Part shown: in pieces, positions 1 to 15,697 of the stretch
Position numbering within the stretch: position 1 is the stretch's first letter
Layout of the letters: each line of letters opens with the position of its first letter
Source: Hippasteria phrygiana
Taxonomy: Eukaryota; Echinodermata; Asteroidea; Valvatida; Goniasteridae
Direction of reading: 5' to 3'
Length of the DNA: 64,000 nt
Assembly (NCBI GenBank): GCA_037893225.1
Contig: JAZGUH010000103.1
Coordinates: forward strand, 3,224,001 to 3,288,000
Position numbers and translations under genes: made by a program
Notes under the pieces: model-generated
Databases searched by the model: none
The model's input: the letters and a program-made list of their open reading frames with translations, nothing else
What the model was told of the DNA's origin: nothing

Positions 1-486
1 TTTACGTTCTTTTTCTGATAATAAACCCAAATCTTCTCTAAAAAAATCTACAAAGCTTTTTGGATACGTATCGCCTGGCCACTTCTCGTTAAAGTTTCTA
101 ATTAACGTATTATATTTTATAAATGTTGTAGGCCTAGTTTTGTGAGTCAACCTAACACCACCGAAGTAAATACCTTTTTCATTTTTAGTAAAAAATTCGT
201 ACCTAATGCGTCTTGGTCTAGTATAGCCTTCCTTATCCCAAAAATCATAAAAAGAATTAGTTAAATCTACATCATCCATCGTCGGCAGTTGTGGTGGTTC
301 ATCCTGTCTGTCTAATTCAAAATCATGGTCGGGGTCTATTCCTAAACCATCCGGTATGTTTAAATCATCGTCTTCAAAATCATCATCGGGGTTTATTACT
401 AAAGCATCATCGGCATCTTGATCATCGACTTGTTCGCCTTCTGTACCGAGCTCGCCCATTTCGAAACCTTCTCCACCTTCAGCCAT
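1..486 (-). CDS. Partial acidic element protein, paralog of the next gene (runs off left edge)
   Basis: An open frame of 162 codons begins with ATG at 486 (minus strand) and is still open at base 1, so the C-terminal part is outside the window. It starts MAEGG, like the neighbouring gene that ends at 505. It then has an Asp/Glu-rich stretch (residues about 20-65) and, from residue 78, a segment beginning SFYDF with a downstream RIRYE and GIY that aligns with residues 75-147 of the neighbour. The two genes are therefore tandem paralogs in the same orientation, 18 bp apart. The start is supported by the identical upstream string TATAAAATGG in both genes. I do not recognise a biochemical function. 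By analogy with the full-length paralog it may continue into a coiled coil and a membrane-interacting C-terminus, but that part is not visible. Confidence 0.75.
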   Translation of the reverse strand, partial: MAEGGEGFEMGELGTEGEQVDDQDADDALVINPDDDFEDDDLNIPDGLGIDPDHDFELDRQDEPPQLPTMDDVDLTNSFYDFWDKEGYTRPRRIRYEFFTKNEKGIYFGGVRLTHKTRPTTFIKYNTLIRNFNEKWPGDTYPKSFVDFFREDLGLLSEKERK

Positions 487-504
487 TTTATAAAGTCGCA
501 TATT

Positions 505-2061
505 TTATTTTTTTTGCACGTATACTAGTATCAAAGTACCAACACCCACCAATAACGTCCACACGTGGTCCGCCAACCAACCTACCGACTTGCTCAATAG
601 ATTTAACAACCAACTCGCGATAGCACCCAAAATACCAGGTAAAGCGGCTAATAACTTACCCCCGAGCTTTTTTAGCAAATTAGCCAAGTTTTTTAAATGA
701 TTACTTATCCAATCTTTCACGTTACCTCCGGTAGGCGGAGTAGGCGTCGGAGCAGGAATAACCGCCGCACCACCCCCACCAAAAGCCAACACCAAAGATT
801 CAACGATAAAACCTATAGCTAAAGCAAACGCGGTTAATATACTTGCAACCGTCACACCCTCTTCTTGAAACAGAATTCTAATCTTTTCTCTTAGCGAGAT
901 ATCACTATCTAGCATTTTATTAAACATTTCTTTGATTCTAACGAGTTGACTTTTGATTCCTCGTTCATTTTCGATCGCCGCTGTCAATCTAGCGGATCTT
1001 TCATCCTTTAGATCTTTTAATCGATTGGCTATTTCTCGTCTCTCTTCTTCGCTCGTTGCTTCAGAGTGTTCAGCTTCGGTTTGATTAATTTCATCATCTA
1101 GCCTTCCTAATCGAGCTAAATTTAATTTTAAATTACCTTTGAGAGTTTGTAACGCTTTGTTTTCACCAGCAATTTCTCTCAAGTTGTTTACTCCCGTAAT
1201 TTTTTTAATTACTATTTCTCGTTCATATAATGCTTTTTCTAGTTCATCCGATACACTTTCTCGTTCATCTAATTCTGTTCTTCGTTTATCTATTACTCCC
1301 CTCGATCTATCTAATGTTTCTACTCGTTCATCTAATATTTTCGCTATTTTATTTAATTCGTTTACTCGTTCATCTAACTCTTTTTTTTGTTTATCTAATC
1401 CTCTTTTGTAGTCACCTAATAATTTACTTGGTTCTTTTATTTCTCCTCGTGAATCTACTTCTATTAATATATCCTCTATTATTTCTTCTACGATTCTTCC
1501 AACTTCATCGGCCGTTTTTGGAAGTTCACTAGTCTCAATATTTTCGGGGTGTAGCTGGCTTATTTCTTGTTGTGCTCGCATAGATACTCTTGTAGGGCGT
1601 AATTGCGCCGTTCCAGTTTTTACCAAACCAAACTCGTCTCGCAAAAAAGGAGCCGGTTTATATCCAGCTTTGGAAATTCTTGGTTTTAACGTACTTAATT
1701 GTACAAACCTTTTAGGATCATTATCATACGTTAACTTTATGTTTTTGTAGTAAATACCATTGTCTTCTTTACGAAAATTTTCATATCTTATATTCGCTGG
1801 TCTTTCGTAACCTTGACCTTTATAAAAATCATAAAACGATTCTGCGTAACCGACTAATTGGCGATGTAAAAGTGGATCTAATCTATCCATCGCTTCATGC
1901 GTCGTTTGTGGGGGTGGAATCGAAAAATCAGTCTCGGCATCAGCATCTTGAAAAATATCGTCGTCATCGGCATCTTCAAAATCATTATCAACATCATCAT
2001 CAGCTTGTTCGTTTTTTCGATCAATTTCCTTCATAGGTATAAAGTCTCCACCTTCAGCCAT
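505..2061 (-). CDS. Coiled-coil protein with hydrophobic C-terminus, element-encoded, function unknown
   Basis: 518 residues. Residues 20-45 are strongly acidic. Residues 75-147 form a domain shared with the truncated paralog to the left. Residues 222-284 are nine unbroken heptads starting mostly with Leu-Asp or Ile-Asp (for example LDERVNE, LDERVET, LDRSRGV), followed by more charged helix to about 385, so a long coiled coil is expected. Residues 404-435 are a hydrophobic Gly/Ala-rich segment, 436-446 is Pro/Thr-rich, 449-490 is an amphipathic helix-prone region, and 499-515 is a probable transmembrane segment before a Lys-Lys end. From memory, proteins with a similar Gly/Leu-rich amphipathic tail occur in Polinton/adintovirus-like elements of aquatic invertebrates. 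A virion or membrane-disrupting role is my inference only. The start is supported by TATAAAATGG directly at the ATG. Confidence 0.8.
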   Translation of the reverse strand: MAEGGDFIPMKEIDRKNEQADDDVDNDFEDADDDDIFQDADAETDFSIPPPQTTHEAMDRLDPLLHRQLVGYAESFYDFYKGQGYERPANIRYENFRKEDNGIYYKNIKLTYDNDPKRFVQLSTLKPRISKAGYKPAPFLRDEFGLVKTGTAQLRPTRVSMRAQQEISQLHPENIETSELPKTADEVGRIVEEIIEDILIEVDSRGEIKEPSKLLGDYKRGLDKQKKELDERVNELNKIAKILDERVETLDRSRGVIDKRRTELDERESVSDELEKALYEREIVIKKITGVNNLREIAGENKALQTLKGNLKLNLARLGRLDDEINQTEAEHSEATSEEERREIANRLKDLKDERSARLTAAIENERGIKSQLVRIKEMFNKMLDSDISLREKIRILFQEEGVTVASILTAFALAIGFIVESLVLAFGGGGAAVIPAPTPTPPTGGNVKDWISNHLKNLANLLKKLGGKLLAALPGILGAIASWLLNLLSKSVGWLADHVWTLLVGVGTLILVYVQKK

Positions 2062-2086
2062 TTTATAAAGTCGTATATTTTATATT

Positions 2087-2320
2087 TTACGTAGTATTCA
2101 CCACATTCTGAGGAATTATTCCTTGACTCACCAACCAAGTCTGAGTAGCTAGAGCGCTACCTACCGTAGCGGTGATTTTAACCGTATCTTCTACGTCTAG
2201 CTTTCCTAAATCGGCGGGCTTAATTTTCAAAAGTTTTTTACTCAACATAGTATAACCTACGGTCAACAAACTCAACACAGCGCCGTGATAAAGAGTATTT
2301 GCAACGTTCTTCGTATCCAT
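2087..2320 (-). CDS. Small hydrophobic element protein, function unknown
   Basis: 77 residues with a hydrophobic segment at about 14-26 followed by a basic KKLLKIK stretch, then a second mildly hydrophobic helix-prone half ending near QGIIP. It sits between two genes of the same strand with short gaps (25 and 32 bp) and starts at GTAAAATGG, the start motif common in this element. Its size and pattern match a small protein I recall as recurrent in Polinton-like elements of invertebrates, but I cannot name it. A small membrane or capsid-associated protein is the likeliest role. A chance ORF is unlikely given the packing and motif. Confidence 0.7.
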   Translation of the reverse strand: MDTKNVANTLYHGAVLSLLTVGYTMLSKKLLKIKPADLGKLDVEDTVKITATVGSALATQTWLVSQGIIPQNVVNTT

Positions 2321-2352
2321 TTTACTTGTACAAATATTTTATTTTTTTTTAT

Positions 2353-2751
2353 TTATTCCATTTCTAATAGTTCTTCAACTTTAGGGGTTACGCTCGCGGT
2401 CTGTACCACCTCTCGCTGGGGTTTACTCTTTTTAAACGCGAGATATCCTAACGATAAAACAACCAAACCAACTATCGCGTATCCCCAGCTCGGAATGTCT
2501 CTCATCGTTAGCGCTGGCGTTTGCTCTTCTTCTACCCTTTGCATTGTTTGTATTTGTTCTTTCATCTTTCTGTTTCTTTCGGCCAGTTTTTTACCTTGCT
2601 CTACTCTTTTAGGGTCTTTTGCTCTTTTTTTTGTGACTCTCGATAGAGCCGGCTGAGTCGGAGCCGGGGGAGGCGGAGCCGGGGGAGACTCTTGGGGAGG
2701 CTGAGCCGGCTCTTGGGCTACTTGATCCGTCGTTGTCGTTTCTAGGCTCAT
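2353..2751 (-). CDS. Proline-rich single-pass membrane protein candidate
   Basis: 132 residues. The first 40 are Pro/Ala/Gln/Thr-rich, residues about 40-70 are very basic and helix-prone, about 86-106 form one transmembrane helix (from WGYAIVGLV to GYLAF) followed by KKSK, and the end is acidic. Its first 143 bp overlap the 3' end of the gene ending at 2609 in another frame. The overlapped part is low complexity in both proteins (Pro-rich here, Ser/Gly/Pro-rich there). The start has TATAAAAG just before the ATG. A single-pass protein with a cytoplasmic or interior basic arm is what the sequence shows; the role is unknown. Confidence 0.65.
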   Translation of the reverse strand: MSLETTTTDQVAQEPAQPPQESPPAPPPPAPTQPALSRVTKKRAKDPKRVEQGKKLAERNRKMKEQIQTMQRVEEEQTPALTMRDIPSWGYAIVGLVVLSLGYLAFKKSKPQREVVQTASVTPKVEELLEME

Positions 2752-3277
2752 CTTTTATAATAGTACTACTATTATTTGTTATTATATTACTACTACTATC
2801 TACCTGTAAATGTTTAGTCGTGATCAACATAGCAACCAAAGGAGACAAATAAACCCCATAATTGTAATGCACTTCACAAAGTAAACTAGACAAGCTGCTA
2901 GAAATAACGGGATCTTTTTCTAAGTCGTTGATAAGGGCTTCTTCAGAATCTAAACAAAGTTTATAACCGAATGGTGAGGCCAGCGGCAAAGTCGCGCCTA
3001 AAGCTTTTGCGTAAACGGTTAACACGCAACTCCCCAAACTGACTATCATTTCTTTACCGAGCTTGGCTTCGTATCTTTTATATAGCTTTTCTTGTTTTTC
3101 TACAGTCAAGCCCTCTATTTCATTGACGGAGTATTCTTTACCGAAATATTTTTTAGAATCACCACTCGCAACTACGCCCAAAAGTCTATTTTTGGATATA
3201 GTTGCTTCTGGGATCGTGGGTGTAGCAGCTATGGGTTCTTGAGATAACGTGCTTAGAGATTCTATCGACTTGCTCAT
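2609..3277 (-). CDS. Conserved element protein with Ser-rich basic tail, function unknown
   Basis: 222 residues. Residues about 33-160 look like a folded, mostly helical domain beginning near DSKKYFGKEY and ending near the hydrophobic YLSPLVAML. Residues about 175-222 are a disordered Ser/Pro/Gly tail ending in KKKSKRP, which could bind nucleic acid or act as a nuclear signal. The domain resembles, from memory, a family often found beside capsid and ATPase genes in invertebrate Polinton-like elements; I know of no demonstrated function. The 3' end overlaps the start of the next gene by 143 bp in a different frame. The start has TTTTAAATG, a weaker version of the common start motif. Confidence 0.7.
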   Translation of the reverse strand: MSKSIESLSTLSQEPIAATPTIPEATISKNRLLGVVASGDSKKYFGKEYSVNEIEGLTVEKQEKLYKRYEAKLGKEMIVSLGSCVLTVYAKALGATLPLASPFGYKLCLDSEEALINDLEKDPVISSSLSSLLCEVHYNYGVYLSPLVAMLITTKHLQVDSSSNIITNNSSTIIKDEPRNDNDGSSSPRAGSASPRVSPGSASPGSDSAGSIESHKKKSKRP

Positions 3278-3392
3278 TTAAAATAGAACTATATTTTTTA
3301 ATCTTATTTCTACAAGAAATATAATCGTAAGAAAATAAAGATAAGTTGATGGCTATTACTAGTTTTAATAATAGGTCTAGATATTCTATCAT
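3186..3392 (-). CDS. Possible small membrane protein (doubtful)
   Basis: 68 residues with a hydrophobic N-terminal segment (about residues 4-22), a Cys and then a basic helix. Its 3' part overlaps the beginning of the 222-residue gene by 92 bp in another frame. In favour: it fills an otherwise empty gap and has TATATAAAATATG at its start, like other genes here. Against: it is short, overlapping, and I recognise no family. It could equally be a chance ORF inside the promoter region of the downstream gene. Confidence 0.3.
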   Translation of the reverse strand: MIEYLDLLLKLVIAINLSLFSYDYISCRNKIKKYSSILNEQVDRISKHVISRTHSCYTHDPRSNYIQK

Positions 3393-3412
3393 ATTTTATA
3401 TATGACTAGATA

Positions 3413-3570
3413 ATCTATAGATCTACTATCTATAGATCATCTATCAGTTATCTATCAGTTATCTATCAGTTATCTAATAGGTATCTAATAGGTACCTATC
3501 AGTTATCTAATAGGTACCTATCAGTTATCTATCAGGTATCTAACAGTTATCTATAGATCAACTATAGATC
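3413..3570. repeat. 11-bp tandem repeat
   Basis: Thirteen consecutive 11-bp units run from 3428 to 3570. Most are variants of ATCTATCAGTT, ATCTAATAGGT and ACCTATCAGTT. Both flanks carry the partly palindromic unit ATCTATAGATC (3413-3423, 3428-3438 and 3549-3559). It fills the gap between the ATPase stop and the genes to its left, and its last unit and a half lie within the last codons of the ATPase. A regulatory or replication role is possible but not shown. Confidence 0.85.
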
Positions 3571-4196
3571 AACTGCCAACAGACAGGAGGATCAGTTTTT
3601 ACCACTAATTTACTAAAAGGGGTGTCTCTTAAGATCTTTTTAATTCTCGATCTTTCTTCTAAAGGCACCGCATCATTTTCATCGAGGCATGAATCGAAAC
3701 TATTTTTATCTTTGCAATAGAACAATACGACAAATGCAGTTTGAGCTCTAAAATCTGTCATTACGCAATTATACTTTTGAGTCATTAACCAACAGTAGTG
3801 ATTGTCGTGCCTACCGCTAAACGCCAATTTCGTTAAAACGCAAGTGTTTTTTCCGAACGCCGCCTTACGATATTTTATGTCTTGTTCCGAGCTACAATCG
3901 TCTATCAAAAATAGAACGTGCGATCCTTTAAATCGAGCTCTATAAAATGCTAAAGCTTCGTTGAGTGTCACCTTTTCTACCTCTAAATCGCATGGGTATA
4001 TCTCGGGGTCTAACCACAACCAACGTCTCTCGAGATAAGTCTTGTTGTTGCTTAACGTAGGACAAATAACTACGATCTTTTCAAAGTGATCTTTATACTC
4101 AGTTTCTAATAGATCTAAAATATATTTGGTTTTACCCGAATTAGTCCTACCGCAAACTATCGCGCAGTGTGGTGTTTTTGGAAACGTTTTATGCAT
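3558..4196 (-). CDS. Virion packaging ATPase, FtsK/HerA (A32-like) family
   Basis: 212 residues. A Walker A loop, GRTNSGKT, is at 16-23. A Walker B strand, HVLFLIDD, ends at Asp99-Asp100. A downstream MTQ at 138-140 is in the place of the sensor Gln typical of this family. Family knowledge: these ATPases pump the DNA genome into the capsid in Polintons, adintoviruses and nucleocytoplasmic large DNA viruses. The length is normal for the compact Polinton version. It lies immediately downstream of the capsid gene (23-bp gap, same strand), which fits a late morphogenesis cluster. The start is the first Met, with TTAATAAACC before it. The C-terminus reads into an 11-bp repeat array. Alternative P-loop ATPases are unlikely given the context. 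Confidence 0.88.
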   Translation of the reverse strand: MHKTFPKTPHCAIVCGRTNSGKTKYILDLLETEYKDHFEKIVVICPTLSNNKTYLERRWLWLDPEIYPCDLEVEKVTLNEALAFYRARFKGSHVLFLIDDCSSEQDIKYRKAAFGKNTCVLTKLAFSGRHDNHYCWLMTQKYNCVMTDFRAQTAFVVLFYCKDKNSFDSCLDENDAVPLEERSRIKKILRDTPFSKLVVKTDPPVCWQLIYS

Positions 4197-4219
4197 GGTT
4201 TATTAATAAGGTTTACTTT

Positions 4220-5497
4220 TTAAGAATAACTACCGCTAAATCGTCCATCTTCTAGCACCAACTGACCATCCATCACCAAGAAAACGTAACACGTTAGAGA
4301 ACCAGCTGTCTCAGCCTCTCTTTCTAAATGGAGAGAAATACCTCCACCTACGTCTCCTATTTTCCTGCCAGAACCGTGACTTTTGTTGTCGTCGGTTACC
4401 CTCGTATCTAGCCAAAGACCGTAACTAGTGTTTAAGTAATCTCCTAGAGTCATATCGTGTAATTCCAAGTCTTTGGACACCCTGGCACCAAATTCTGTAT
4501 TAGAGTCTCCGAAAAACTTGGTAATCTCGTCCCAGTGTTGATAACGCTTCATGCCCTGACTATACAATTGATTCGGCTTACCCTCTATCGTAACGTCTAC
4601 TTTTTCGATCTTTGGATTATAAAAAATTCGAGGATCCTTTTCGCCCGATTCTTTAAATAAAAGAAGTATACCTTTGAGACTTCTAATGGCTTGATTGAGA
4701 TTAATGTTCCAAGTAGTATCGGACTTGTTTAGCGTTAAAACCGTATATCTTTGAACTTTTTCGTATAGAAAATGAGTTTTACCTCGATATTTTTGTCTGA
4801 TATTATCTGCCAATGTTTTATTAGTCACCGTTTCAAACTCGAGATCTAACCCAGAAATTTTATACTTTGCGTTGTTATCGGTAGATTTTACTACGCTATC
4901 GTGATCGTTAAATGTAAATTCGTAAGTTAGTCTGTCTTTGAGCGTCGATGGACTAAAAGGCTGATGATCCGTAAGCATTTCAAAATCTAGAGGAATGTAA
5001 TATCGATTACCGTAAGCGTTGGCAATCGCTTTGTCTTTTCCACCATTCGCGCTAGTAATCCCATCGCTAGCGCCGATTCTGAGTTTCGTGATGTTGCTAT
5101 CTTCGAGTCCTCGATACGCATCGTTCGCGCTGGCTGGTCGCCACATGTCTTTATACGCGTTATATACATCGGCATCCGTAAACGCTACGAAATCTTTACC
5201 TTCTAGTTTGATTCTTACGCCGCTAATTAAATTTCGTGCGACGTTATAATATAGAGTTCTTGCATCGTCTTCGCCAGTGCCTTCAGATTCTAAGTCTATA
5301 TTAAAAGCTAATCGTACTGTACCCGGTACGACTACATCGTCTTGACTCAACATAGGAAATTCAACGATCAACAGACTGCCGGCCGATGCGGTACTAGGAT
5401 TATGAGTAATAACCATCGATTGTCTCAATCCCTTCAACGCTCTAGGATTTTTTAAACTTCTGTGTGGATTCAGTTTGCTTCCATAAATTGCGTTCAT
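4220..5497 (-). CDS. Major capsid protein (double jelly-roll hexon type)
   Basis: 425 residues, rich in beta-prone segments with no membrane helix. Recognisable features are the segment around YYIPLDFEML followed by PFSPSTLKDRLTYEFTFND at about 166-199, and a C-terminal beta-rich end (TCYVFLVMDGQLVL). This pattern matches the capsid proteins of Polinton/adintovirus-like elements as I recall them. The double jelly-roll fold itself is inferred from family membership. It sits between the ATPase and the conserved small protein next to the integrase. The start is the first Met with GTAAAATG directly upstream. It is on the short side for a hexon-type protein, but no frameshift or stop is visible. 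Confidence 0.78.
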   Translation of the reverse strand: MNAIYGSKLNPHRSLKNPRALKGLRQSMVITHNPSTASAGSLLIVEFPMLSQDDVVVPGTVRLAFNIDLESEGTGEDDARTLYYNVARNLISGVRIKLEGKDFVAFTDADVYNAYKDMWRPASANDAYRGLEDSNITKLRIGASDGITSANGGKDKAIANAYGNRYYIPLDFEMLTDHQPFSPSTLKDRLTYEFTFNDHDSVVKSTDNNAKYKISGLDLEFETVTNKTLADNIRQKYRGKTHFLYEKVQRYTVLTLNKSDTTWNINLNQAIRSLKGILLLFKESGEKDPRIFYNPKIEKVDVTIEGKPNQLYSQGMKRYQHWDEITKFFGDSNTEFGARVSKDLELHDMTLGDYLNTSYGLWLDTRVTDDNKSHGSGRKIGDVGGGISLHLEREAETAGSLTCYVFLVMDGQLVLEDGRFSGSYS

Positions 5498-5536
5498 TTT
5501 ACTTAACGAAACAAAAAAATAAAAAGCAAAAAACGT

Positions 5537-5950
5537 TTAAATAAACTTATAAACTAAGTAACCTAAAACAGCAGTGCCTCCTAAGATAAATACAATTTCA
5601 CCATCTTTTTGACCTTCGCTAGGTGCGTAAAAGTCCGACAATACAGGTTCGCGAGGTAATCTTATATCTTCGTTGGTTACTTCGTTATATTCTCTCAACG
5701 CCTCATCTACATTTTGAAAATCTTTTTGAGCCCTGGCTTCTTTATGTAGTCGATCGTTTAGATAATCTAGATACTTGGTTCTTTGTTCTACCCACTCTTG
5801 TTTAGCTCGAGTTAATTGTTCTAAAGCGAGGTCGTGTCGTTTACGTTCTTCAGCCGACGACCCACCCATACTCGAAAATAGAAAGTTCGATCCGCTAAAC
5901 GCTAAAGCGTTTACAATAGCTCCACCAATCATCATTAATGCACTCGCCAT
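5537..5950 (-). CDS. Small conserved element protein with two hydrophobic ends
   Basis: 137 residues if translation starts at the ATG at 5950 (MASAL). An upstream in-frame ATG at 6001 would add 17 residues but would overlap the divergent integrase start codon at 5992, so I prefer 5950, which has TTATTAAAAATGG. The N-terminus (about 3-30) is hydrophobic and Gly/Ala/Phe-rich. Residues about 33-90 are a charged coiled coil (AEERKRHDLALEQL and onward). The C-terminal 20 residues are a transmembrane helix ending in YKFI. From memory, this architecture is one of the commonest small ORFs beside capsid genes in Polinton-like elements. The role is unknown; a structural or membrane-associated virion protein is plausible. 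Confidence 0.75.
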   Translation of the reverse strand: MASALMMIGGAIVNALAFSGSNFLFSSMGGSSAEERKRHDLALEQLTRAKQEWVEQRTKYLDYLNDRLHKEARAQKDFQNVDEALREYNEVTNEDIRLPREPVLSDFYAPSEGQKDGEIVFILGGTAVLGYLVYKFI

Positions 5951-5991
5951 TTTTAATAAGTCGTTAAAATTTTTTCTGCTTTTAAAATAAA
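5951..5991. promoter_or_regulatory. Divergent intergenic region, probable bidirectional promoter
   Basis: This 41-bp AT-rich gap separates the small conserved protein (leftward) from the integrase (rightward). It carries TAAAATAAAATG-type sequence on the integrase side and TTATTAAAAATG on the other. It must hold the start signals of both genes unless they lie inside coding sequence. Another divergent gap of exactly the same length is at 8509-8549. Confidence 0.5.
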
Positions 5992-6999
5992 ATGGAAACA
6001 AAACTAAGTAAAATATTTTACAGCCCTAAAGGATATTGGAAAGGTGCAGGCGCTATAAAAAAATTATCGTTAAAAGCTAACGTACCCGAGCCAGACGTTA
6101 GAAATTGGTTGAGAAAACAAGCCATGTGGCAAATATATTTACCACCCCCCAGTTTTATACCGAGACCTACGAGTCTCAATAAGGTTATAGGGAGGCCTAA
6201 TGAACAACATCAAGCGGATCTGTTGTATCTACCTCACGATGTAGTTAGACGAAAAAGATATAAATACGCGTTGACAATCGTGGATGTGGCCACTCGATAT
6301 AAAGAAGCTGAACCCTTGACGAATAAAACGAGTACTCAAGTTGTAGAGGCTATAAAAAAGATTTACAAAAGATCGCCCTTGTCTTGGCCTCTCACGATAA
6401 AAGTAGACCCCGGTACAGAATTTATGGCTGAATTTAATACTTTGATGCGGACTCGCAACGTCGCAGTACAGAAAGGCGAGGTTGGTAATCATAGAGCTCA
6501 AGGTATAGTAGAAAGATTTAATCGTACTTTAGCCGAAAGATTATTCGGTCATCAATACGCTCAAGAAATGTTAGAGCCTACCGAGCGTAGCCGAGAGTGG
6601 GTAAAAAGATTACCCGAGGTCGTAGCTGCGTTAAACGACGAAGAAACTAGATTGATATCGACTATGAAAGGTAAACCGTTAACTCCTCGAGCGGCTATGT
6701 CTCAGTTAGAAATAAAACAATTGAGTTCCTCGGGGCTCAAGAGTCCCGAAGATCTTTTAAGCGTAAATGACGATATCGTTAGATATCTTTACGCTCCTGG
6801 AGAGCTCGAAAAAGACGTTAGAAGAAGAGCTACCGATCCTATTTGGAGCTTAGAAATGTATACGATTAGAAGGAGAACGACAAATCCCGGACAGCCCGCG
6901 TTATACTGGCTGAATAACGGTCCCAAGAGATCGTTCGTTAAGAAAGAATTAATGGTCGTTCCATCAGATACTGAGTTACCGCCTTCTTCAGCGACGTAG
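5992..6999 (+). CDS. Retroviral-type integrase (rve, DDE family) of Polinton/adintovirus kind
   Basis: 335 residues. The catalytic triad is visible as Asp76 (QADLLYL), Asp139 (KVDPGTEF) and Glu174 (GIVERFNRTL); the last two are separated by 34 residues, as expected for a DD35E-type core. The N-terminal 50 residues look like a helix-turn-helix (VPEPDVRNWL) rather than the His-His-Cys-Cys zinc finger of retroviruses. The C-terminal 60 residues (YTIRRR to SFVKKELMVV) look like the small beta-barrel or chromo-like tail of Polinton integrases. Family role: it inserts the linear element into host DNA and makes a short target duplication. All active residues are present. It is divergent from the gene at 5537-5950 and overlaps the next gene tail-to-tail by 12 bp. 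TAAAATGG is at the start codon. Confidence 0.93.
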   Translation: METKLSKIFYSPKGYWKGAGAIKKLSLKANVPEPDVRNWLRKQAMWQIYLPPPSFIPRPTSLNKVIGRPNEQHQADLLYLPHDVVRRKRYKYALTIVDVATRYKEAEPLTNKTSTQVVEAIKKIYKRSPLSWPLTIKVDPGTEFMAEFNTLMRTRNVAVQKGEVGNHRAQGIVERFNRTLAERLFGHQYAQEMLEPTERSREWVKRLPEVVAALNDEETRLISTMKGKPLTPRAAMSQLEIKQLSSSGLKSPEDLLSVNDDIVRYLYAPGELEKDVRRRATDPIWSLEMYTIRRRTTNPGQPALYWLNNGPKRSFVKKELMVVPSDTELPPSSAT

Positions 7000-8508
7000 A
7001 ATATCGTAAGCTAGATACCCAACTCCAGCAGCGGCCATTAAACCAACGACTAAAGCCGTTTTTTCTTGTTCGTGCGAGTCTGGCGGTGGCGTAGCTGCTC
7101 GCGTAGCTACGCTCGTAGGGTGTATGATCTCAGGTAGCGGAGGTGTAGGGGTTGGTGACTCTAAATCGTCTAAATCGTCTAAATCGTCTAAATTCTGCTG
7201 GGTTACTACCTTACTCTCTTTTACGGGAGAGGGCTGGGTTGGTGGCGACGTCGCCAGGTCGTCTAAATCGTCTAAATCGTCTAAGTTCTGCTGGGTTACT
7301 GCACTACTCTCTTTTATGGGGGTTGGTGGCGTTACGACCGTAGGGAGTACGTCTGAGTTCAAGTTGATGTTTAATCCTATCGATGCGTCGGGTGTAGCTA
7401 TCTGTATATTATTATTATAACCTCGGTGAATACCGACCAAAAGCTCCATATTTGATGGCATCAAGTACAATCCAGGGCCAATCACAAAGTTTAACGAGCT
7501 TCTAGCGTACTGTAAAGAATTTTGAAATCTGGTTATAGAAGATTCCAAGTCCGTATGGCTGTTGATGATGTCTTCTACTATATTTTCAAATTGTCTTTGC
7601 GAATCTAATCCGGTACCCGCAGTTAGTATACTCGTTTTTGTTTGGGCTTGCGCACCGAGTATGGCGTACACGTACGTTCTAATGCTTTCGTTTATTTTTT
7701 CTATACCAACGTCGGTAAACGAGCTCTTCTGGAGTATAAACTTTCTAAAACCGAGTCGTACAACGTCTACGGATTGTCTGATATACGCGATCGTTATTTT
7801 ACTAAAATGTTTCGCATCGCCCGACTCTACAAATCCCATGTAGGTGGCGCCGGGGTTCATAGCTTCATAATCGTATTCCCACAATTTATTAGCCGTCACA
7901 TAGTCACCCGTACTAGGGTCATATTCAGCCGAAACCTTGTAAAGCTTAATAGGGGTATAATTTTTACCGGGTACGGGTAAAGGTATATCTGGCGAGTACT
8001 TGTTTATTTTAAACAGGTAAGAATAAGCGGTACCTAATCCTCCAGAAGTTAAGTCTACGGTCTGTTTAAAACTCAAGTTTGGATCGACATTAAAATGTCG
8101 ACAAATATCGCTATAAGCGCCTTTATCGATGCCATTGTTTAGATCGTCGAATGTATTGTCTTCTGGAACTGGGCATTTTAGAAAGTAAAGTATCTTTCTG
8201 ATCGTGAAATATACGTGAAACTTGAATAAAGCCGATATTACGGGGTTTTTATGTAGCAACGATTCTAGTCCTACGCCGCAACCCGACGTCGCGCACCAAA
8301 ATGCGAAGTTGAGTTGATTTTGATAAAACGTCATGGGGTCCGATGCGTAACGTTTGACCACTTCGTCGTGTTTTACGTCGGACATTTTATAAGCGCTAAA
8401 TATATCCGTTAAATTAGAGATAAAACTCGCGTTCGTGTTGGCGTTTACGATGATATTAGGTTGACTCAAGTGCATGTTCAACGGGGTACTCTCCGGGGCG
8501 AATTTCAT
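6988..8508 (-). CDS. Large conserved element protein with C-terminal membrane anchor, function unknown
   Basis: 506 residues. Residues 1 to about 365 are a folded region with a Cys/Gly-rich segment (FWCATSGCGVG, about 70-80), the segment SIRTYVYAILGAQAQT (about 270-285) and a beta-rich end (GPGLYLMPSNMELLVG). This pattern is familiar to me from Polinton-like elements of cnidarians, but I know of no assigned function. Residues about 390-480 are a Pro/Thr-rich linker with two copies of a block containing VTQQN followed by LDDLDDLDDL. The last 25 residues are one transmembrane helix ending in Arg-Arg. It overlaps the integrase stop by 12 bp on the opposite strand. A minor virion protein anchored in or threading a membrane is an inference. 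The start has AATAAAATG. Confidence 0.78.
   Translation of the reverse strand: MKFAPESTPLNMHLSQPNIIVNANTNASFISNLTDIFSAYKMSDVKHDEVVKRYASDPMTFYQNQLNFAFWCATSGCGVGLESLLHKNPVISALFKFHVYFTIRKILYFLKCPVPEDNTFDDLNNGIDKGAYSDICRHFNVDPNLSFKQTVDLTSGGLGTAYSYLFKINKYSPDIPLPVPGKNYTPIKLYKVSAEYDPSTGDYVTANKLWEYDYEAMNPGATYMGFVESGDAKHFSKITIAYIRQSVDVVRLGFRKFILQKSSFTDVGIEKINESIRTYVYAILGAQAQTKTSILTAGTGLDSQRQFENIVEDIINSHTDLESSITRFQNSLQYARSSLNFVIGPGLYLMPSNMELLVGIHRGYNNNIQIATPDASIGLNINLNSDVLPTVVTPPTPIKESSAVTQQNLDDLDDLDDLATSPPTQPSPVKESKVVTQQNLDDLDDLDDLESPTPTPPLPEIIHPTSVATRAATPPPDSHEQEKTALVVGLMAAAGVGYLAYDILRR
7160..7316. repeat. Internal coding repeat with LDD triplets
   Basis: Two copies of a block, 7160-7224 and 7259-7316, each contain a 9-bp repeat of type TCTAAATCG (three to four units) followed by a matching flank through TTCTGCTGGGTTACT. 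They encode the duplicated VTQQN plus LDD-repeat segment of the 506-residue protein. The two copies differ at a few bases, so the duplication is not brand new. Confidence 0.8.
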
Positions 8509-8549
8509 TTTATTTTTAATAAACCAAATATTTTAATCTTTTACATAAA
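8509..8549. promoter_or_regulatory. Divergent intergenic region, probable bidirectional promoter
   Basis: This 41-bp gap separates the 506-residue gene (leftward, AATAAAATG at its start) from the first penton-like paralog (rightward, ACATAAAATGG at its start). It is AT-rich and the only space available for the start signals of both genes. Confidence 0.5.
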
Positions 8550-9248
8550 ATGGAATCGCACGTTTTTGAAATGTTTGATAATGAACGAACGTTTAGACTG
8601 TCAAAACCTATAGATAACTCAAAGGGAGATTACAGTATGAGTTTAACCAGCGCGATAGTAACCGCGGGCTTCTACAACATGGCTAGTAATAGCGAAATTC
8701 TCTATTTTATACATCAAGTCGATCCAAGCACGGGAAGAAGAACGGGTAGTACGGATGGTAGAATTGATATTCCTGCTGGATTTTACGATATAGATTGGAT
8801 CGAAGGCCGACTAAGTAAATTAGTTTGGTTAGAAGTCTCCGTAGATAAACTTAATAAAAAAATATCTTTAAATGTAACGGAAGAAAATAACGTTCTACGC
8901 TTTGATAAAAACATTAAACAATTGTTGGGGATAACGGTTAAAAACTTAGTTTTTGGCGTAGATTATGTAGGGAATTATAATACAATGCCTGTCGATGCAA
9001 TGTTTTTACATTGCGATCAGTTATCTACGTCTAATAATTTCTATAACGGAAAGAGCACGCACTTGCTAGACGTTATACCGATAACGAAAAGAGACGATAC
9101 GCTCGTAGAGCGTGCGAGATTAACCGCTCGTAGACTCGTGGGTGATAAGATAAACCAACTTAGCTTTAGTATCAGAGACCGAGACGGCGATTTAATAAAT
9201 AATCGAGGAAAAAAGATTAGTTTTAACTTGACGATAGGTAAATTTTAA
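8550..9248 (+). CDS. Penton-like minor capsid protein candidate, copy 1
   Basis: 232 residues, beta-rich with no membrane segment. The N-terminus MESHVF is followed by NERTFRLSKPIDNS. A conserved central segment reads FLHCDQLSTSNNFYNG followed by STHLLDVIPI, and the C-terminus is LSFSIRDRDGDLINN. Size and pattern fit the single jelly-roll minor capsid (penton) family of Polinton/adintovirus-like elements, which would occupy the vertices of the particle built by the capsid protein at 4220-5497. The assignment rests on recalled resemblance and context, not on a diagnostic catalytic motif. A paralog follows 34 bp downstream in the same orientation. The start has ACATAAAATGG. Confidence 0.65.
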   Translation: MESHVFEMFDNERTFRLSKPIDNSKGDYSMSLTSAIVTAGFYNMASNSEILYFIHQVDPSTGRRTGSTDGRIDIPAGFYDIDWIEGRLSKLVWLEVSVDKLNKKISLNVTEENNVLRFDKNIKQLLGITVKNLVFGVDYVGNYNTMPVDAMFLHCDQLSTSNNFYNGKSTHLLDVIPITKRDDTLVERARLTARRLVGDKINQLSFSIRDRDGDLINNRGKKISFNLTIGKF

Positions 9249-9282
9249 AAGATTTTTTAAAGCTTTTGTAAGCTTTAATAAA

Positions 9283-10005
9283 ATGGAATCGCACGTTTTT
9301 AAAATGGATGGTAACGAACGAACGTTTAGTCTGTCAAAACCTATAGATAACTCCGAGGGAAATTACTGTATGAGTTTAAACAACGCGATATTTACCGTCG
9401 GTTTTGTTAATATAACTCAACGTATGACTATAGGATGGCAAATATATGGCGACACCGTCGCCACCCAAAACGGTGAAACGGTAATTCCGCCTGGAAATTA
9501 TACTATCGATGAGTTAATAGATGAATTTAATAAATTAAGATTGATCAGAGTTTCCGTAGACAAGATTAATAAAAATATTATTTTTAATCTCGGTGTATTA
9601 TTGACAGATAAACATGTTATTATTACGTTCGATCTATATACTCGAAAAGTGTTGGGTCTACCCTCTAGTTGGTTCCCCGTTGTTGGTAGTGAACTTGTAG
9701 GCTATTATAATATAAATTACTTGAATACAATTTTTTTACATTGCGATCAGTTATCTACGTCTAATAATTTCTATAACGGAAAGAGCACGCACTTGTTAGA
9801 CGTTATACCGATCGCATATATTGAGGCTGATTCGGATATAATAGCGACTGTCCAGAATAAAAGAAAAACTGTCATACCTCTAATTAGGAGTAAAATACCC
9901 GAACTGAGTTTTTCTTTCAGAGACTGCGATGGCGAGTTAATCGATAATAACCATAAGAAATTTATTTTTCGAGTAGATATATATCGATCGTCTTGTTCTG
10001 GCTAA
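9283..10005 (+). CDS. Penton-like minor capsid protein candidate, copy 2
   Basis: 240 residues, a tandem paralog of the gene ending at 9248. The N-terminus (MESHVF, NERTF.LSKPIDNS) and the central HCDQLSTSNNFYNG segment are the same, and the C-terminus LSFSFRDCDGELIDN is similar. The part between (about residues 40-140) has diverged strongly. An almost identical DNA patch of about 80 bp encodes the central segment in both copies. The last 44 bp overlap the 3' end of the polymerase gene on the opposite strand. Having two penton-like proteins suggests vertex variants or different partners, but that is inference. The start has TTTAATAAAATGG. Confidence 0.63.
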   Translation: MESHVFKMDGNERTFSLSKPIDNSEGNYCMSLNNAIFTVGFVNITQRMTIGWQIYGDTVATQNGETVIPPGNYTIDELIDEFNKLRLIRVSVDKINKNIIFNLGVLLTDKHVIITFDLYTRKVLGLPSSWFPVVGSELVGYYNINYLNTIFLHCDQLSTSNNFYNGKSTHLLDVIPIAYIEADSDIIATVQNKRKTVIPLIRSKIPELSFSFRDCDGELIDNNHKKFIFRVDIYRSSCSG

Positions 10006-13000
10006 AACGATAACCGTAAGCCAGAGTATCTATACCGTTAGGTAAAATATATCTCTTCGTATCTAAAGGATTTAACGATTGCTTGACTTGAGCCTCTGTG
10101 TATATCATGTGACGCTCAGTTCCAAAACGAATCATCTTATTTGAATAGCATTCGTTCGATAAAACGCATCGCTTGTACTTTTCGTAAGATAGATCGTTGT
10201 TTATAACCACTCGGTTTACGCCTTTGGCCTTCTTTAGTATATCGTGTTCCCCGTATAAAATCGAGTACATCTTCGATCTGATGCAAGTAGCTTCGCTTAT
10301 GACTTTTCCTCCGCATTCGTCTTTAAATTTACCGATAACTTTCTTGTTTGTATCGTCGTATAAAAAGTGGTCTTTCTCGTAGTTAGAAAAATCGTACAAG
10401 TCGGACTGTTTTTCTAGATCCCGATAAACGTCTTTCGTATAGATAATCAAAAGCAGCGAGTCCGTGTCTGTATACATCAATCTTACTTTATCACAATACG
10501 TCTTTTTTAATTGGTTGTAATAAAAGTCGTACATTAGAGTCTTCGAGAGGTCTAAGATACTAACGCCGCAGTAAATCGGTTTATTTAAATACGTTTTCTT
10601 TTTGTACGATTCCACGAATGAGAGACCGCATTCTTTAAACGCCGTAGTAGACTTGTAACAAGGTTTAGAAACCATCTCTTTGTATTCTTTTACTTGATCG
10701 TTTCTCAGTAGCACACCATCTATTCTATTTCTGACGTTTTCCATCGTTTTGCCAAATACAGAATTATTCATTAATTTGAAAAAGTCTTTTTCAAAATCCG
10801 ACTTTGCTTTCGTTCTGAGTTGCGTGTTTTTATCGATGTATGATTTCATCCAAGGTTTTTGTTTAAATTGTAACGCCCGATGTACTTTATTTAGTTTTAG
10901 GCCCAATGTCAAACACTGTTTCAAATTGACGTAGTGCAATACATATTTTTCTTTGCGATATAGCGTACCTGTTAATTTTTTTACCTTAGCTGTGTCTCCT
11001 ATATCACTCACCAACTCTCGTTGATACTCGGATAACCATTCTTCAGGTATGATTATATTATCGGCGGCTAAAGGATAATCGTTGTGTAGATCGTGTAGTT
11101 CGGCTGGATATTCCAGGTCAACTTCTAACATATATCCCGTTTTAGCCTTATCTTTTAACGCCATGATGCGATCGTGGGTAAATTGACTCGTACTGACCCA
11201 TTTAAATCCTCCGTAAGGTATAGCTCGACTCATGGCCCATCCGTAGAGGTTGTTAGCGTCTAGATAGAGAATATACGAATCGGGTTTATCTCGATCGTGA
11301 GATTCTAGGTACTTATTGTTGGCCTTGGCATAGCGACATGAGCCGACGCTCGATATTCCTCCTCTTTTCGCTTTTTCAAAAAATAGATGTTTATCTATAT
11401 CGGTTAATAATTCTAATTCTATTTTAGTGTGCCTCAGCAACGCGTCCCAACTTAACCCCGGTGCTGTGAAGTAGTTGGCTGGATCCAACTTGTAATTCGT
11501 TCTACACATTTGCCTAAAATTCTGGAATACGCCGGCTAGTAATAGAGTATCCGCGGTTACGTACAAGTCGTGGTATTCGCCCATGTTTTTTATATTAAAG
11601 GTCCGCCATACTCGGTGCGCGCGCGAGTAGTCTTCGTCCGTTATATGTTTGTCCTTTAGAGCGCTAAAAAAATGGTGTTTAGCCGGCAGACTAGTTTCGC
11701 TAAATCGTTCAAAGCTGTCCATGTACTCGTACGGATATACACCCTTTTGTAATAAGAGGTCCGCGTTTTCTTCGCCATAACGTTTCAGGAGTAGCCTAAA
11801 AGCGTCTCTCGGGCAAGACGTTACCAATTTGTCGAGACCGCTAGACATAAAATGAAACGAGTCGATAAATCTATATTGACCGATCGAAAATGAAATGTAT
11901 TTTTCTGAATTTTTGGGTATACACCAGATATCTCGTTGGTACTTAGAAATACCCTGCATGATCAAGTGCGCGTCATAGTTTTCTAAGTTGTGAAAGATGA
12001 CCGGTATTTTCGTTTCGTTGGGTTTTACTCGTAATTTAAGATTACAGTAAGCGTGCGCGGCTCCTCTGTACTTACCGGTAGTGTGGCAATGATCTCTGAC
12101 TTTTCGAAATTTGTTAATTTTCTTTTGGCAAAACGTACATGTTTTCTCGACGTATCCCTTTTCGTTTTCGTACGTGTATTCTTCAAGTTCTTCTTTACTT
12201 TTGGGTTCTACGGGTTCGCAGCACAGGCAATTACACGAGTAATTTGGATAAATCGCTCTCTCGCAAATCCAGCACTCGTTAGAGTTTAGGTGAATTTTTT
12301 CTTCAGTAAGCGTATATATTATCGGTTTAATGCGAGCTAGTAATTCATTAATCTTAGGTTCGAGTTCTTGCAACGAGGTTATAAAATTGTCTATAGCGCG
12401 TTCACCTCTATAAGTCTTTCGCTTGATCCGCTTGCCATCGCATCTTACTACAACGTAAGAATAACCGCAGGCTTTGTGCGTTGCGATTTTACCCTCTGGT
12501 GCTTCTGTAGCTACACTCGCAGAGGGTACCAAGATAGATTCAAAATCCGCGTATATGACGTAGGGTGCATCTTGTAAATTCTTAAAGTTTTTAAACTTGA
12601 GAATGCTTTTGTCCAAGTATTTATTCGCATTTTCATGCGGCATTTTAACGGTAGATAAAGCAGAGTCTATTCCTTCGCAATCTTCTACGTGTCTGTCCAG
12701 CTTCTCTTTCGAACAAAAATGCGTTAAACATCTCAAGCAAAACAGTTTGCGATGCTGACTATTGGTAACGCAAGATAAGAATCTAGACAAGTCATTTATC
12801 CAACAATAATGACCGTCATATAATAGCAAACTGATAGTTTCTACATCGTATGGTCTTTTAGATAAATATAGCGGATATATCAAGCCCCTTTTATCTTGCG
12901 GATAGGTTTTATTTTTGCAGTCTGCGTCGTATCCCAACACGTTTATACTTGTATCGTTTTGTCTTTCTATTCTCGCTATCTGATTTATGGGTGTGGGGAA

Positions 13001-13945
13001 GTCTATGTTGGTGAAGTTTAATCCATCATCAGTTTTATAATTAGAAGCTCTGTTTTTTTGCCAAGTATACAGCGGGTTGGTTTCTATTTGGTTTTTAACT
13101 TTATCGGTATATATACCTAGGGCGGCTCTTAAACACCATCTTATACACTCTTGATCTTCGTTTTTGATGTTGACGGTTGCGTGTTTGTTAGTTATATACT
13201 CGGGTAGTTTTACGTAAGAAGCGCCTACCAGAGGGTTCACTCTGTTTATGTTTATGTAAAACGCGACTATTTTATCTATAGTCCAACCACTTCCTTCATT
13301 CGTATATTTATCTATCTGAGATAATATCGTTTCGTATTGCTGCCTGATAGCTACAGCTATCTCGCTCTTGTTTAAGACTCGATTTTGATAACTAAAATGA
13401 GTAGCGGTTGATTTTGTAGTCTCAACGCCCGATTTTTTTACATACTTTATTTTCATGGCGATCTGTAGTTTCATCGTTTTTATTTCTCTTAATTCAGCGA
13501 CGATTTTGTTTTTTATCATCGACGTATGGGTGTTGTAAAATTGCTCCGGATCGTCGGTAAACAGAATCGGAATCAGTTCCAAATTTCGATAACTGTTTTC
13601 AAATCTTCTAGTCTCTCGAAAGTCTGCTTCTCGAAAAGTATTTTTCTCCTTAAATCTTAGTATAGCATCGATGTAATCTTTTTTTATCGCTCGACCATTT
13701 CTACCCGTTGATACGACTCGTAAATTTTTATCGCGCGCGAGTCGCTCTAACGAAGCTTTAGATCGTATTCTAAAATTTTTAAATTTTTCTTCTTCTCTTT
13801 TTATAGCTAGAATATAATCTCGCCTGATATACGTATTACGGCGTCCTGTTGGTGTTCCTAAAGATAATTTATACTTATCGACATATCTTTTTAAAGATTT
13901 TTTGTTCCATCTATTGTACTCTCGAATCGTGGGTTGTGTTTCCAT
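9962..13945 (-). CDS. polB: Protein-primed family B DNA polymerase (Polinton/adintovirus type)
   Basis: 1,327 residues, intact. Exonuclease motifs: DFE at 467-469, NLENYDAHL with Asp658, and YVTADT with Asp799. Polymerase motifs: A, LDANNLYGWAM with Asp896; B, KLMNNSVFGK at 1057-1066; C, YTDTDS with Asp1160 and Asp1162. The N-terminus has two SAP-like helical repeats (about 8-50 and 58-98). A C2HC zinc finger uses Cys403, Cys406, His419 and Cys423. A Cys-rich insert at about 558-640, with CxxC at 603-606, DHCH at 618-621 and AYCNL near 634, resembles the endonuclease VII/HNH fold between Exo I and Exo II. Family role: replication of the linear element from a terminal protein primer. The 5' end faces the right end of the element. 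TATAAAAGATGG is at the start. The 3' end overlaps the second penton-like gene by 44 bp. Confidence 0.93.
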   Translation of the reverse strand: METQPTIREYNRWNKKSLKRYVDKYKLSLGTPTGRRNTYIRRDYILAIKREEEKFKNFRIRSKASLERLARDKNLRVVSTGRNGRAIKKDYIDAILRFKEKNTFREADFRETRRFENSYRNLELIPILFTDDPEQFYNTHTSMIKNKIVAELREIKTMKLQIAMKIKYVKKSGVETTKSTATHFSYQNRVLNKSEIAVAIRQQYETILSQIDKYTNEGSGWTIDKIVAFYININRVNPLVGASYVKLPEYITNKHATVNIKNEDQECIRWCLRAALGIYTDKVKNQIETNPLYTWQKNRASNYKTDDGLNFTNIDFPTPINQIARIERQNDTSINVLGYDADCKNKTYPQDKRGLIYPLYLSKRPYDVETISLLLYDGHYCWINDLSRFLSCVTNSQHRKLFCLRCLTHFCSKEKLDRHVEDCEGIDSALSTVKMPHENANKYLDKSILKFKNFKNLQDAPYVIYADFESILVPSASVATEAPEGKIATHKACGYSYVVVRCDGKRIKRKTYRGERAIDNFITSLQELEPKINELLARIKPIIYTLTEEKIHLNSNECWICERAIYPNYSCNCLCCEPVEPKSKEELEEYTYENEKGYVEKTCTFCQKKINKFRKVRDHCHTTGKYRGAAHAYCNLKLRVKPNETKIPVIFHNLENYDAHLIMQGISKYQRDIWCIPKNSEKYISFSIGQYRFIDSFHFMSSGLDKLVTSCPRDAFRLLLKRYGEENADLLLQKGVYPYEYMDSFERFSETSLPAKHHFFSALKDKHITDEDYSRAHRVWRTFNIKNMGEYHDLYVTADTLLLAGVFQNFRQMCRTNYKLDPANYFTAPGLSWDALLRHTKIELELLTDIDKHLFFEKAKRGGISSVGSCRYAKANNKYLESHDRDKPDSYILYLDANNLYGWAMSRAIPYGGFKWVSTSQFTHDRIMALKDKAKTGYMLEVDLEYPAELHDLHNDYPLAADNIIIPEEWLSEYQRELVSDIGDTAKVKKLTGTLYRKEKYVLHYVNLKQCLTLGLKLNKVHRALQFKQKPWMKSYIDKNTQLRTKAKSDFEKDFFKLMNNSVFGKTMENVRNRIDGVLLRNDQVKEYKEMVSKPCYKSTTAFKECGLSFVESYKKKTYLNKPIYCGVSILDLSKTLMYDFYYNQLKKTYCDKVRLMYTDTDSLLLIIYTKDVYRDLEKQSDLYDFSNYEKDHFLYDDTNKKVIGKFKDECGGKVISEATCIRSKMYSILYGEHDILKKAKGVNRVVINNDLSYEKYKRCVLSNECYSNKMIRFGTERHMIYTEAQVKQSLNPLDTKRYILPNGIDTLAYGYRFSQNKTIDIYLLEK

Positions 13946-14340
13946 CTTTTATAATGGCAATATAATATTTTTTTTTTAAATAAAAATTTATTTAATTTTT
14001 TTGGCTTGCAACAAATCATTTTTTTTGCCTTGTTTCGCCGGGCGCCCTGGAGATTTAGTATCTCTGTAGACTATGGAAAACAGTGTTTATTTTCTTGATT
14101 TTGTGCTAATTTTGGTGTATAGGTACCCAGCAAAATTTTGGGCGATTTTTGGGCGATTTTTAGACTATTTGTTTTTTAAAAAATTTGATGTATGTACCCA
14201 CAGCAAAATTGGAGAAGAAGGTGAAAAATCGGGTTTTGTCGCTGAATCGGCATCTTCTATACTACTGGTCGCTATTTGACTTGGGTAAACCTTTGGCATT
14301 ATTTAAAGGTTTTACCCAAATCAGCGGCCTCCTATTGTGT
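13946..14340. other. AT-rich right flank of the element, end not located
   Basis: Immediately upstream of the polymerase are homopolymer A and T tracts (13966-14030) that probably include its promoter. Further on are two copies of GGGCGATTTTT (14139-14161), two similar ACCCA(CA)GCAAAATT strings (near 14124 and 14196), and an imperfect hairpin with arms TTGGGTAAACCTTT (14281-14294) and AAAGGTTTTACCCAA (14305-14319). The right terminus of the element should lie here, but with the left end outside the window I cannot match a terminal inverted repeat or target duplication. I see no gene. Confidence 0.45.
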
Positions 14341-14940
14341 ACGAATTGTAATTGACAAACTAATATTACCACACCACCAGACACCCTTTACTAAATTGCA
14401 AAATTGAATAGTAATGACCTGGTCAGTTTGTGGTGACTTTGGCGGTTTTATGGAGTCCTCTAAAGTGGCGCACTAAGGCGTTTCCCCTAATTTCGTCAGA
14501 TAGTTTTAACAAACTTCTTGTTTGGTCAAACTCATCCAGTTGAATATTGGTACTATTACCTTAATAAAACTTGCTTCGTGAATCATGTAACTTTTTAATT
14601 TCTTGATATTGTTTTTATAAGTCAATAATATGGTGCCGGCGGTTGTCTGACGTGGCGGCCTTAAATAAACTTCAATCAATTTTAAATTTTAGAGTTGACC
14701 AACTATGATTAATCATTACCTCCGTTCATATACCCAACTTCGTGTCCTATTTGAAATTGTTCACCGCGCATTTAAAATTATAAATCGGATAATCGAGCCG
14801 ATGTAACATTTTCCTCATGATTTTGAAACGGGTCAGTTTCTGTGCAATTTTGGGTAAACTATTACTCAGACAAGGCGCACAAGAAGAAAACTCAAAAGTC
14901 CACTACGTTTATAGACCATAGAGAGCAAACAACAAGGGCC
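14341..14940. other. Intergenic region, nothing recognised
   Basis: This AT-leaning sequence has only short open frames without family resemblance or start context. I see no RNA gene, repeat or transposon terminus that I can support. It is probably host flanking DNA beyond the element. Confidence 0.4.
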
Positions 14941-14964
14941 AGGCCCGTAGCCAGACTTGGAAGT

Positions 14965-14989
14965 GGGGGGGGGGGGGGGGGGGGGGGGG
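14965..14989. repeat. Poly-G tract (25 G)
   Basis: An uninterrupted run of 25 G follows the string GGCCCGTAGCCAGACTTGGAAG. That string resembles dispersed repeats I recall from marine invertebrate genomes, possibly a transposon end, but I cannot confirm this. The run length is likely to be imprecise in any assembly. Confidence 0.9.
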
Positions 14990-15205
14990 TCTTTTCAAGT
15001 GAAAGTGGATGTGTTTCAGATTTGTTTTCAAAATGTTTTCGGCCCCGCAAGATAATTTAGAAAAGCGGTGGTGGGGTGTGTGTGGCTAGAAATCTCTTTT
15101 GGCTCCCCTTACGCCTGTATTGTACTAATAGGCCACATTATATCGCCGCTGTCAATGTATGCGACGATAACAAAAATGTCAAGCGGACCATACAGCAAAA
15201 AGAGA

Positions 15206-15690: not shown

Positions 15691-15697
15691 CAGTGTA

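What the first reader, a model, noticed from the sequence alone, without database searches (positions are those of the whole stretch)
1..13945. Apparently intact virus-like Polinton/adintovirus element
Integrase with a complete DDE triad, protein-primed polymerase with all exonuclease and polymerase motifs, packaging ATPase with both Walker motifs, capsid and penton-like genes are all uninterrupted. Old insertions normally decay by frameshift and stop, so this copy is probably young or still mobile, or able to make particles. The activity claim is inference.
Basis: partly seen in the sequence, partly recalled or inferred. Interest (0 to 1): 0.75.

Follow-up and report, generated by a model that had tools for sequence, protein, structure and literature searches.

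The report
Intact, recently multiplied Polinton-like virus element
A complete 16.9-kb virus-like mobile element, with its own polymerase, integrase and capsid genes, belongs to a family with several hundred copies in one large genome, many of them intact, so it has moved recently and may still move, perhaps inside virus particles.

Summary
The observation largely holds, and the whole genome extends it. The window carries the right 14,266 bp of a 16,918-bp element; its left end lies 2,652 bp beyond the window. It has inverted repeats of at least 272 bp without substitutions between them, (AGT)2/(ACT)2 tips, and a 5-bp target duplication; the uninterrupted site occurs elsewhere as a host repeat.
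It encodes a DDE integrase, packaging ATPase, a polymerase with vOTU, exonuclease and palm motifs, and a double-jelly-roll capsid protein whose closest solved folds are giant-virus capsids. A 45-base integrase probe finds 423 places in the 944-Mb genome (control 0).
Among best-scored copies, which favour intact ones, frames are open in 120 of 120 (integrase), 98 of 99 (capsid) and 31 of 35 (polymerase). pN/pS is 0.11-0.47 in five genes. So it is a young, recently mobile family; particle formation is inferred.
No protease or integrase chromodomain was recognised and duplications are 5 bp, not the 6 bp used for vertebrate Mavericks: a Polinton-like variant, not filed as an adintovirus. The penton label is untested.
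Terminal repeats match within a copy but differ between copies, tracking the adjacent polymerase end, as protein-primed replication predicts.

The parts
1..14266 (.). Right-hand 14,266 bp of the 16,918-bp element; the remaining 2,652 bp lie left of the window (G000:C103:3221349-3224000)
   Evidence: Homology with other copies ends at 14266-14269 in 17 of 18; TIR, TSD and empty sites
1..501 (-). 5' part of a 503-aa gene (whole gene in L009 6975-8486), paralogue of the next gene, with IEVDDQP repeats and a hydrophobic C-terminus
   Evidence: windowed nt identity up to 98-99% near the 3' end
505..2061 (-). 518-aa acidic/coiled protein with hydrophobic C-terminus, function unknown
   Evidence: no Pfam family over its cut-off
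2353..2751 (-). 132-aa small protein with one likely membrane segment (judged by eye)
2609..3277 (-). 222-aa protein, unknown
3405..3575 (.). 11-bp tandem repeat between genes, overlapping the 3' end of the ATPase gene
3558..4196 (-). A32-like packaging ATPase
   Evidence: Pox_A32 2.9e-5, above its cut-off; Walker A/B
4220..5497 (-). Double jelly-roll major capsid protein, 425 aa
5537..6001 (-). Small protein with a likely C-terminal membrane segment (by eye; mechanical ORF starts at TTG, first Met at 5950)
   Evidence: pN/pS 0.47 in 8 copies
5992..6999 (+). rve integrase, 335 aa, D76-D139-E174
   Evidence: 120 of 120 scored copies open
6988..8508 (-). 506-aa conserved protein with no fold match found
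8550..9248 (+). 232-aa protein, penton candidate A
   Evidence: no homologue; penton resemblance recalled only
9283..10005 (+). 240-aa paralogue, penton candidate B
   Evidence: 49% aa identity to A; 88-nt block 97% identical (8995-9082 / 9725-9812), suggesting gene conversion
9962..13945 (-). [quoted passage not shown]
   Evidence: Motifs; Endonuclease_7 7.1e-5, just below its cut-off; the nine motif strings checked are identical in 17 of 17 open copies, except ExoIII (one copy differs) and endonuclease VII (two copies differ)
13995..14266 (.). Right terminal inverted repeat (at least 272 bp), ends ...ACTACT
   Evidence: 99.6% to the left repeat, 0 mismatches and 1 gap
14267..14271 (.). Right copy of the 5-bp target site duplication GGTCG
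   Evidence: joined flank found uninterrupted elsewhere

Best explanation
This is a complete, recently inserted member of a large and recently mobile family of Polinton-like integrating virus elements. Most likely life cycle: (1) the vOTU-polymerase starts DNA synthesis at the terminal repeats with a terminal protein as primer and makes a linear extrachromosomal copy (inferred from polymerase motifs and from repeats that match within a copy but differ between copies); (2) the A32-type ATPase packages that DNA into a double-jelly-roll capsid (inferred from genes under purifying selection; particles not seen); (3) the integrase inserts the ends into host DNA with a 5-bp staggered cut (the 5-bp duplications are shown; the enzyme's part is inferred). 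Copies then decay separately.
For: Exact ends, repeats and 5-bp duplications in 10 of the 10 copies with both ends found; 19 copies were examined and 9 had no left repeat within the piece fetched. The joined flank is found uninterrupted at 101 places with <=3 mismatches, 42 of them exact, control 0. 423 integrase places, control 0. Open frames: integrase 120/120 of those scored among 2193 candidates, capsid 98/99 of 1086, polymerase 31/35 of 2018. pN/pS: integrase 0.11, capsid part 0.18, 506-aa gene 0.30, small protein 0.47 (8 copies); polymerase 0.27, and 0.16-0.21 from the endonuclease insert to its C-terminus (17 copies). Capsid fold. Terminal repeats are 96-100% identical within a copy, while right repeats differ between copies by a mean of 0.165, against 0.113 at 4-fold synonymous sites of the polymerase gene (0.086 in its adjacent third); rank correlation with the adjacent third is 0.89, with the other thirds 0.49 and 0.63 (15 copies).
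Against: No maturation protease recognised. Penton unproven. Pfam gives no polymerase domain. Of 20 copies whose polymerase was read, 4 are broken and one of the 16 open ones lacks the usual start; 4 of the 35 best have one in-frame TAG. The scored lists favour intact copies, so the intact fraction of the 423 is unknown. In 9 of 19 copies none of four pieces of this copy's left part was found where expected, so completeness of the ends is shown for 10 only. The first 100 residues of the polymerase show pN/pS 0.97. No transcripts, small RNAs or particles were examined.
Confidence: 0.82

Rival explanations
1. A strictly intracellular giant transposon: capsid genes are carried along or serve intracellular DNA protection, and the element no longer leaves the cell.
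For: Many copies in one genome; no protease recognised; penton unproven.
Against: Capsid gene open in 98 of 99 scored copies, and pN/pS of its sequenced part, 0.18, is near that of the integrase, 0.11.
Confidence: 0.35
2. An old, stable resident kept intact by host benefit (for example antiviral defence), not by its own spread.
For: Such a role is suggested for protist Polinton-like viruses (PMC12220804, start of abstract in the listing only).
Against: 423 places, repeats with 0 substitutions in this copy and breaks at different places in different copies fit spread, not retention at fixed sites.
Confidence: 0.05
3. Free virus or contaminant DNA misassembled into the contig.
For: CpG observed/expected 1.51 in window 1-13945 against 0.71 in 13946-16700.
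Against: Lies inside a 7.57-Mb contig; precise 5-bp duplication; uninterrupted sites elsewhere; copies on many contigs.
Confidence: 0.02

Closest known systems
Polintons/Mavericks (vertebrate Mavericks, PMC8097293; Polinton capsids, PMC4028283)
   Same: Size (16,918 bp; vertebrate mean 16,862), TIR length in the reported range, (AGT)2//(ACT)2 tips, integrase, A32-like ATPase, DJR capsid (Polinton PY matched PBCV-1 VP54), polymerase motifs
   Different: 5-bp instead of 6-bp duplications; no protease recognised (identifiable in 74% of Polintons in PMC4028283, so its lack is not unique); gene order differs from the two-module vertebrate plan; 423 integrase places of all states here, against totals up to 287 per vertebrate genome (axolotl, all defective) and at most 38 intact in one genome. 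Very high loads are known in a protist: up to 30% of the Trichomonas genome (PMC6431247, passages)
Adintoviruses (definition in PMC11071296, section 16)
   Same: Polymerase with OTU-like motifs, rve integrase, DJR capsid; duplicate pentons occur in some
   Different: No chromodomain found in the integrase; capsid model closest to giant-virus capsids; hexon not compared with an adintovirus hexon by BLASTp
'Meldvirus' chimeras (PMC11071296, section 16 and a passage of the Figure 7 legend)
   Same: Adinto-like polymerase and integrase joined to virion proteins resembling those of larger DNA viruses
   Different: Found there in a survey of assembled read sets; here a chromosomal family with ends, duplications and hundreds of places

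Membership tests
Polinton/Maverick | Terminal inverted repeats with (AGT)2//(ACT)2 tips | tested here: met
Polinton/Maverick | 6-bp target site duplication (as used for vertebrate Mavericks) | tested here: not met
   5 bp in 10 of 10 copies with both ends; empty site has one GGTCG
Polinton/Maverick | rve integrase | tested here: met
Polinton/Maverick | Protein-primed type B polymerase (TP-vOTU-EXO-PALM) | tested here: inconclusive
   vOTU, exonuclease and palm motif strings present and nearly invariant in copies; no Pfam polymerase match; TP domain not tested by fold
Polinton/Maverick | A32/FtsK-like packaging ATPase | tested here: met
Polinton/Maverick | Double jelly-roll major capsid protein | tested here: met
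Polinton/Maverick | Single jelly-roll penton | tested here: inconclusive
   Two paralogous candidates; no homologue for the first; not folded
Polinton/Maverick | Adenain-like cysteine protease | tested here: inconclusive
   No peptidase family at E<=1 among the Pfam hits of 14 genes; genome-wide PF00770 search silent, but so were its controls
Adintoviridae | Hexon recognisable by BLASTp to adintovirus hexons | not tested
   No adintovirus hexon sequence was at hand
Adintoviridae | Integrase with C-terminal chromodomain | tested here: inconclusive
   Only rve found by Pfam at E<=1

The most novel reading that the evidence does not exclude
A currently infectious endogenous DNA virus family of this organism whose replication origins (terminal repeats) and terminal-protein region of the polymerase diversify together as matching pairs, so that several origin types coexist in one genome and replicate best with their own polymerase.
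Probability: 0.2. Interest if true: 0.8.

Novelty: new variant of a known kind. Interest (0 to 1): 0.52.

Why it matters
Whether Polintons are transposons or viruses that still make particles is an open question, partly because intact copies are rare: the vertebrate survey found 134 in 17 species, at most 38 in one genome (PMC8097293). A genome with 423 places carrying the integrase probe, and with nearly all best-scored genes open, is a natural system in which transcription, extrachromosomal DNA, insertion polymorphism and particles could be looked for directly. The paired divergence of terminal repeats and polymerase N-terminal third gives a sequence-level handle on protein-primed initiation.

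Full report
What is there. The window is G000:C103:3224001-3288000 of a 944-Mb assembly in 1285 contigs. Its first 14,266 bp are the right part of a mobile element; from 17,109 to the end it is a 234-bp satellite array. The integrase has the DDE triad and matches rve. The ATPase has both Walker motifs and matches Pox_A32. The 1327-aa polymerase carries vOTU Cys and His, a zinc finger, exonuclease I-III and polymerase A/B/C motif strings and an endonuclease VII-like insert. The motif names are recalled, and Pfam returned no polymerase family. The TP-vOTU-EXO-PALM layout and inserted homing endonucleases are described for Polintons in PMC11071308 (abstract and parts 1-2 of section 5 read).

Ends. 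Comparing the right flank with 18 other copies, homology stops at window 14266 to 14269 in 17 of 18 (the eighteenth alignment stops 38 bases earlier), and all 18 show ACTACT at the junction. The same sequence lies inverted at L009:5349, so the element spans C103:3221349-3238266, 16,918 bp. The two 272-bp repeats differ by one gap and no substitution. Nineteen copies, this one included, were examined for both ends: 10 had both, and all 10 have a 5-bp duplication; in 9 no left repeat was found in the 2.2-kb piece fetched, nor any of four pieces of this copy's left part, so their left sides remain unknown. The joined flank of this insertion, with one GGTCG, occurs at 101 places with up to 3 mismatches, 42 of them exact, with a control of 0. 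The element therefore sits in a host repeat and the duplication is 5 bp.

Gene content. From left: 157 aa (+), 208 aa (-), 503 aa (-), 518 aa (-), 132 aa (-), 222 aa (-), ATPase (-), capsid (-), small membrane-like protein (-), integrase (+), 506 aa (-), two paralogues of 232 and 240 aa (+), polymerase (-). No peptidase family appears among the Pfam hits at E<=1 of these 14 genes. A genome-wide search for the adenain family was silent, but its controls were silent too. In PMC4028283 (passages seen) the protease was identifiable in 74% of Polintons, so its absence would not be unique.

Copies. A 45-base integrase probe with up to 3 mismatches hits 423 places (214 forward, 209 reverse; control 0). 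Among the best-scored matches, the integrase is open in 120 of 120 (2193 candidates), the capsid in 98 of 99 (1086 candidates) and the polymerase in 31 of 35 (2018 candidates), the other four with one TAG. These lists favour intact copies. In 20 copies chosen from the integrase list (10 high-ranked, 10 from its end), the polymerase frame is open over at least 1305 aa in 16 and broken in 4, at different places; one of the 16 lacks the usual start. Three integrase copies from the probe list outside the best 120 are also open, 95.5-97.0% identical. For comparison, 134 intact Mavericks were found in 17 vertebrate species, at most 38 in one genome, with totals up to 287 (PMC8097293, passages and sections 7 and 8 read).

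Selection and age. Pooled pairwise pN/pS is 0.106 for the integrase, 0.178 for the sequenced part of the capsid gene, 0.295 for the 506-aa gene and 0.47 for the small protein (8 copies), and 0.27 for the polymerase in 17 copies: 0.16-0.21 from the endonuclease insert to the C-terminus but 0.97 in the first 100 residues. Pairs are not independent. Repeats within a copy differ by 0 to 11 substitutions over 271-282 bp, so insertions are of different ages and this one is among the youngest. At an assumed 3e-9 substitutions per site per year, 0 in 272 would mean roughly under 2 My; the host's rate is unknown, and gene conversion between repeats could make copies look younger. CpG is in excess in window 1-13945 (observed/expected 1.51) and low in 13946-16700, which includes the right repeat (0.71). 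The drop falls at the start of the polymerase gene, so coding and noncoding DNA are confounded; within genes, CpG across codon junctions exceeds the mean of synonymous shuffles in 9 of 9 genes tested. Polymerase genes of all 17 open copies keep 1.55-1.67, so there is no sign of methylation-driven decay.

Ends and polymerase. In the 15 copies with a whole right repeat and an open polymerase, right repeats differ by a mean of 0.165; the polymerase gene differs by 0.059 at all sites and 0.113 at 4-fold synonymous sites, 0.086 in the third next to the repeat. So the repeats change about 1.5 to 1.9 times as fast as synonymous sites, not dramatically faster. Their distances rank almost like those of the adjacent polymerase third (0.89; 0.87 at 4-fold sites) and less like the middle and far thirds (0.49 and 0.63; 0.39 and 0.32 at 4-fold sites). 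Copy C231 has 99% identity to this copy in the polymerase 5' part but 88% in the repeat. Within a copy the left and right repeats, some 16 kb apart, are 96-100% identical. Ends that are copied from one another during protein-primed replication predict this. The repeat-polymerase pairing may be mere linkage with recombination inside the gene; co-evolution of origin and terminal protein remains a conjecture.

Verdict. The element works like a Polinton: best read as a complete, recently mobile, virus-like integrating element. Because 6-bp duplications were tested and not met, and a protease, a penton and a chromodomain were not established, it is described as a Polinton-like variant and not filed as an adintovirus. 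Particle production is plausible but unproven. A search of PMC for 5-bp Polinton duplications listed 8 of 137 papers; among these only the Ginger paper PMC2836005, not read, holds '5-bp TSD', so novelty of the 5-bp duplication is not claimed.

Noticed in passing
window 17109-64000: A 47-kb array of a 234-bp satellite, about 201 copies, with higher-order periodicity at several lags (930, 1164-1166 bp), begins 2.8 kb right of the element after a 16-bp tandem array.
   Followed up: partly
window 8550-10005: Two tandem paralogous genes (49% aa identity) share an 88-nt block at 97% nucleotide identity inside otherwise diverged sequence, suggesting recent gene conversion.
   Followed up: partly
window 505-2061 and L009 6975-8486: Another tandem paralogue pair with 3' segments up to 98-99% identical at nucleotide level while the 5' halves are mostly 36-69% identical.
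   Followed up: partly
window 6988-8508: Conserved 506-aa gene with a confidently predicted core and no fold match found in the PDB or BFVD libraries searched.
   Followed up: partly
window 14267 onward: The element sits in a host repeat: the joined flank occurs at 101 places, 42 exact.
   Followed up: partly
window 1-13945: Marked CpG excess (1.51) and TpG shortage (0.72), opposite to window 13946-16700.
   Followed up: yes
G000:C44, C60, C62, C175 polymerase copies: The four scored polymerase copies with a stop each carry one TAG; whether it is the same position was not checked.
   Followed up: no
left ends of nine copies (C16, C807, C293, C349, C993, C719, C245, C269, C406): None of four pieces of this copy's left part was found where expected; they may be longer or carry a different left part.
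   Followed up: no
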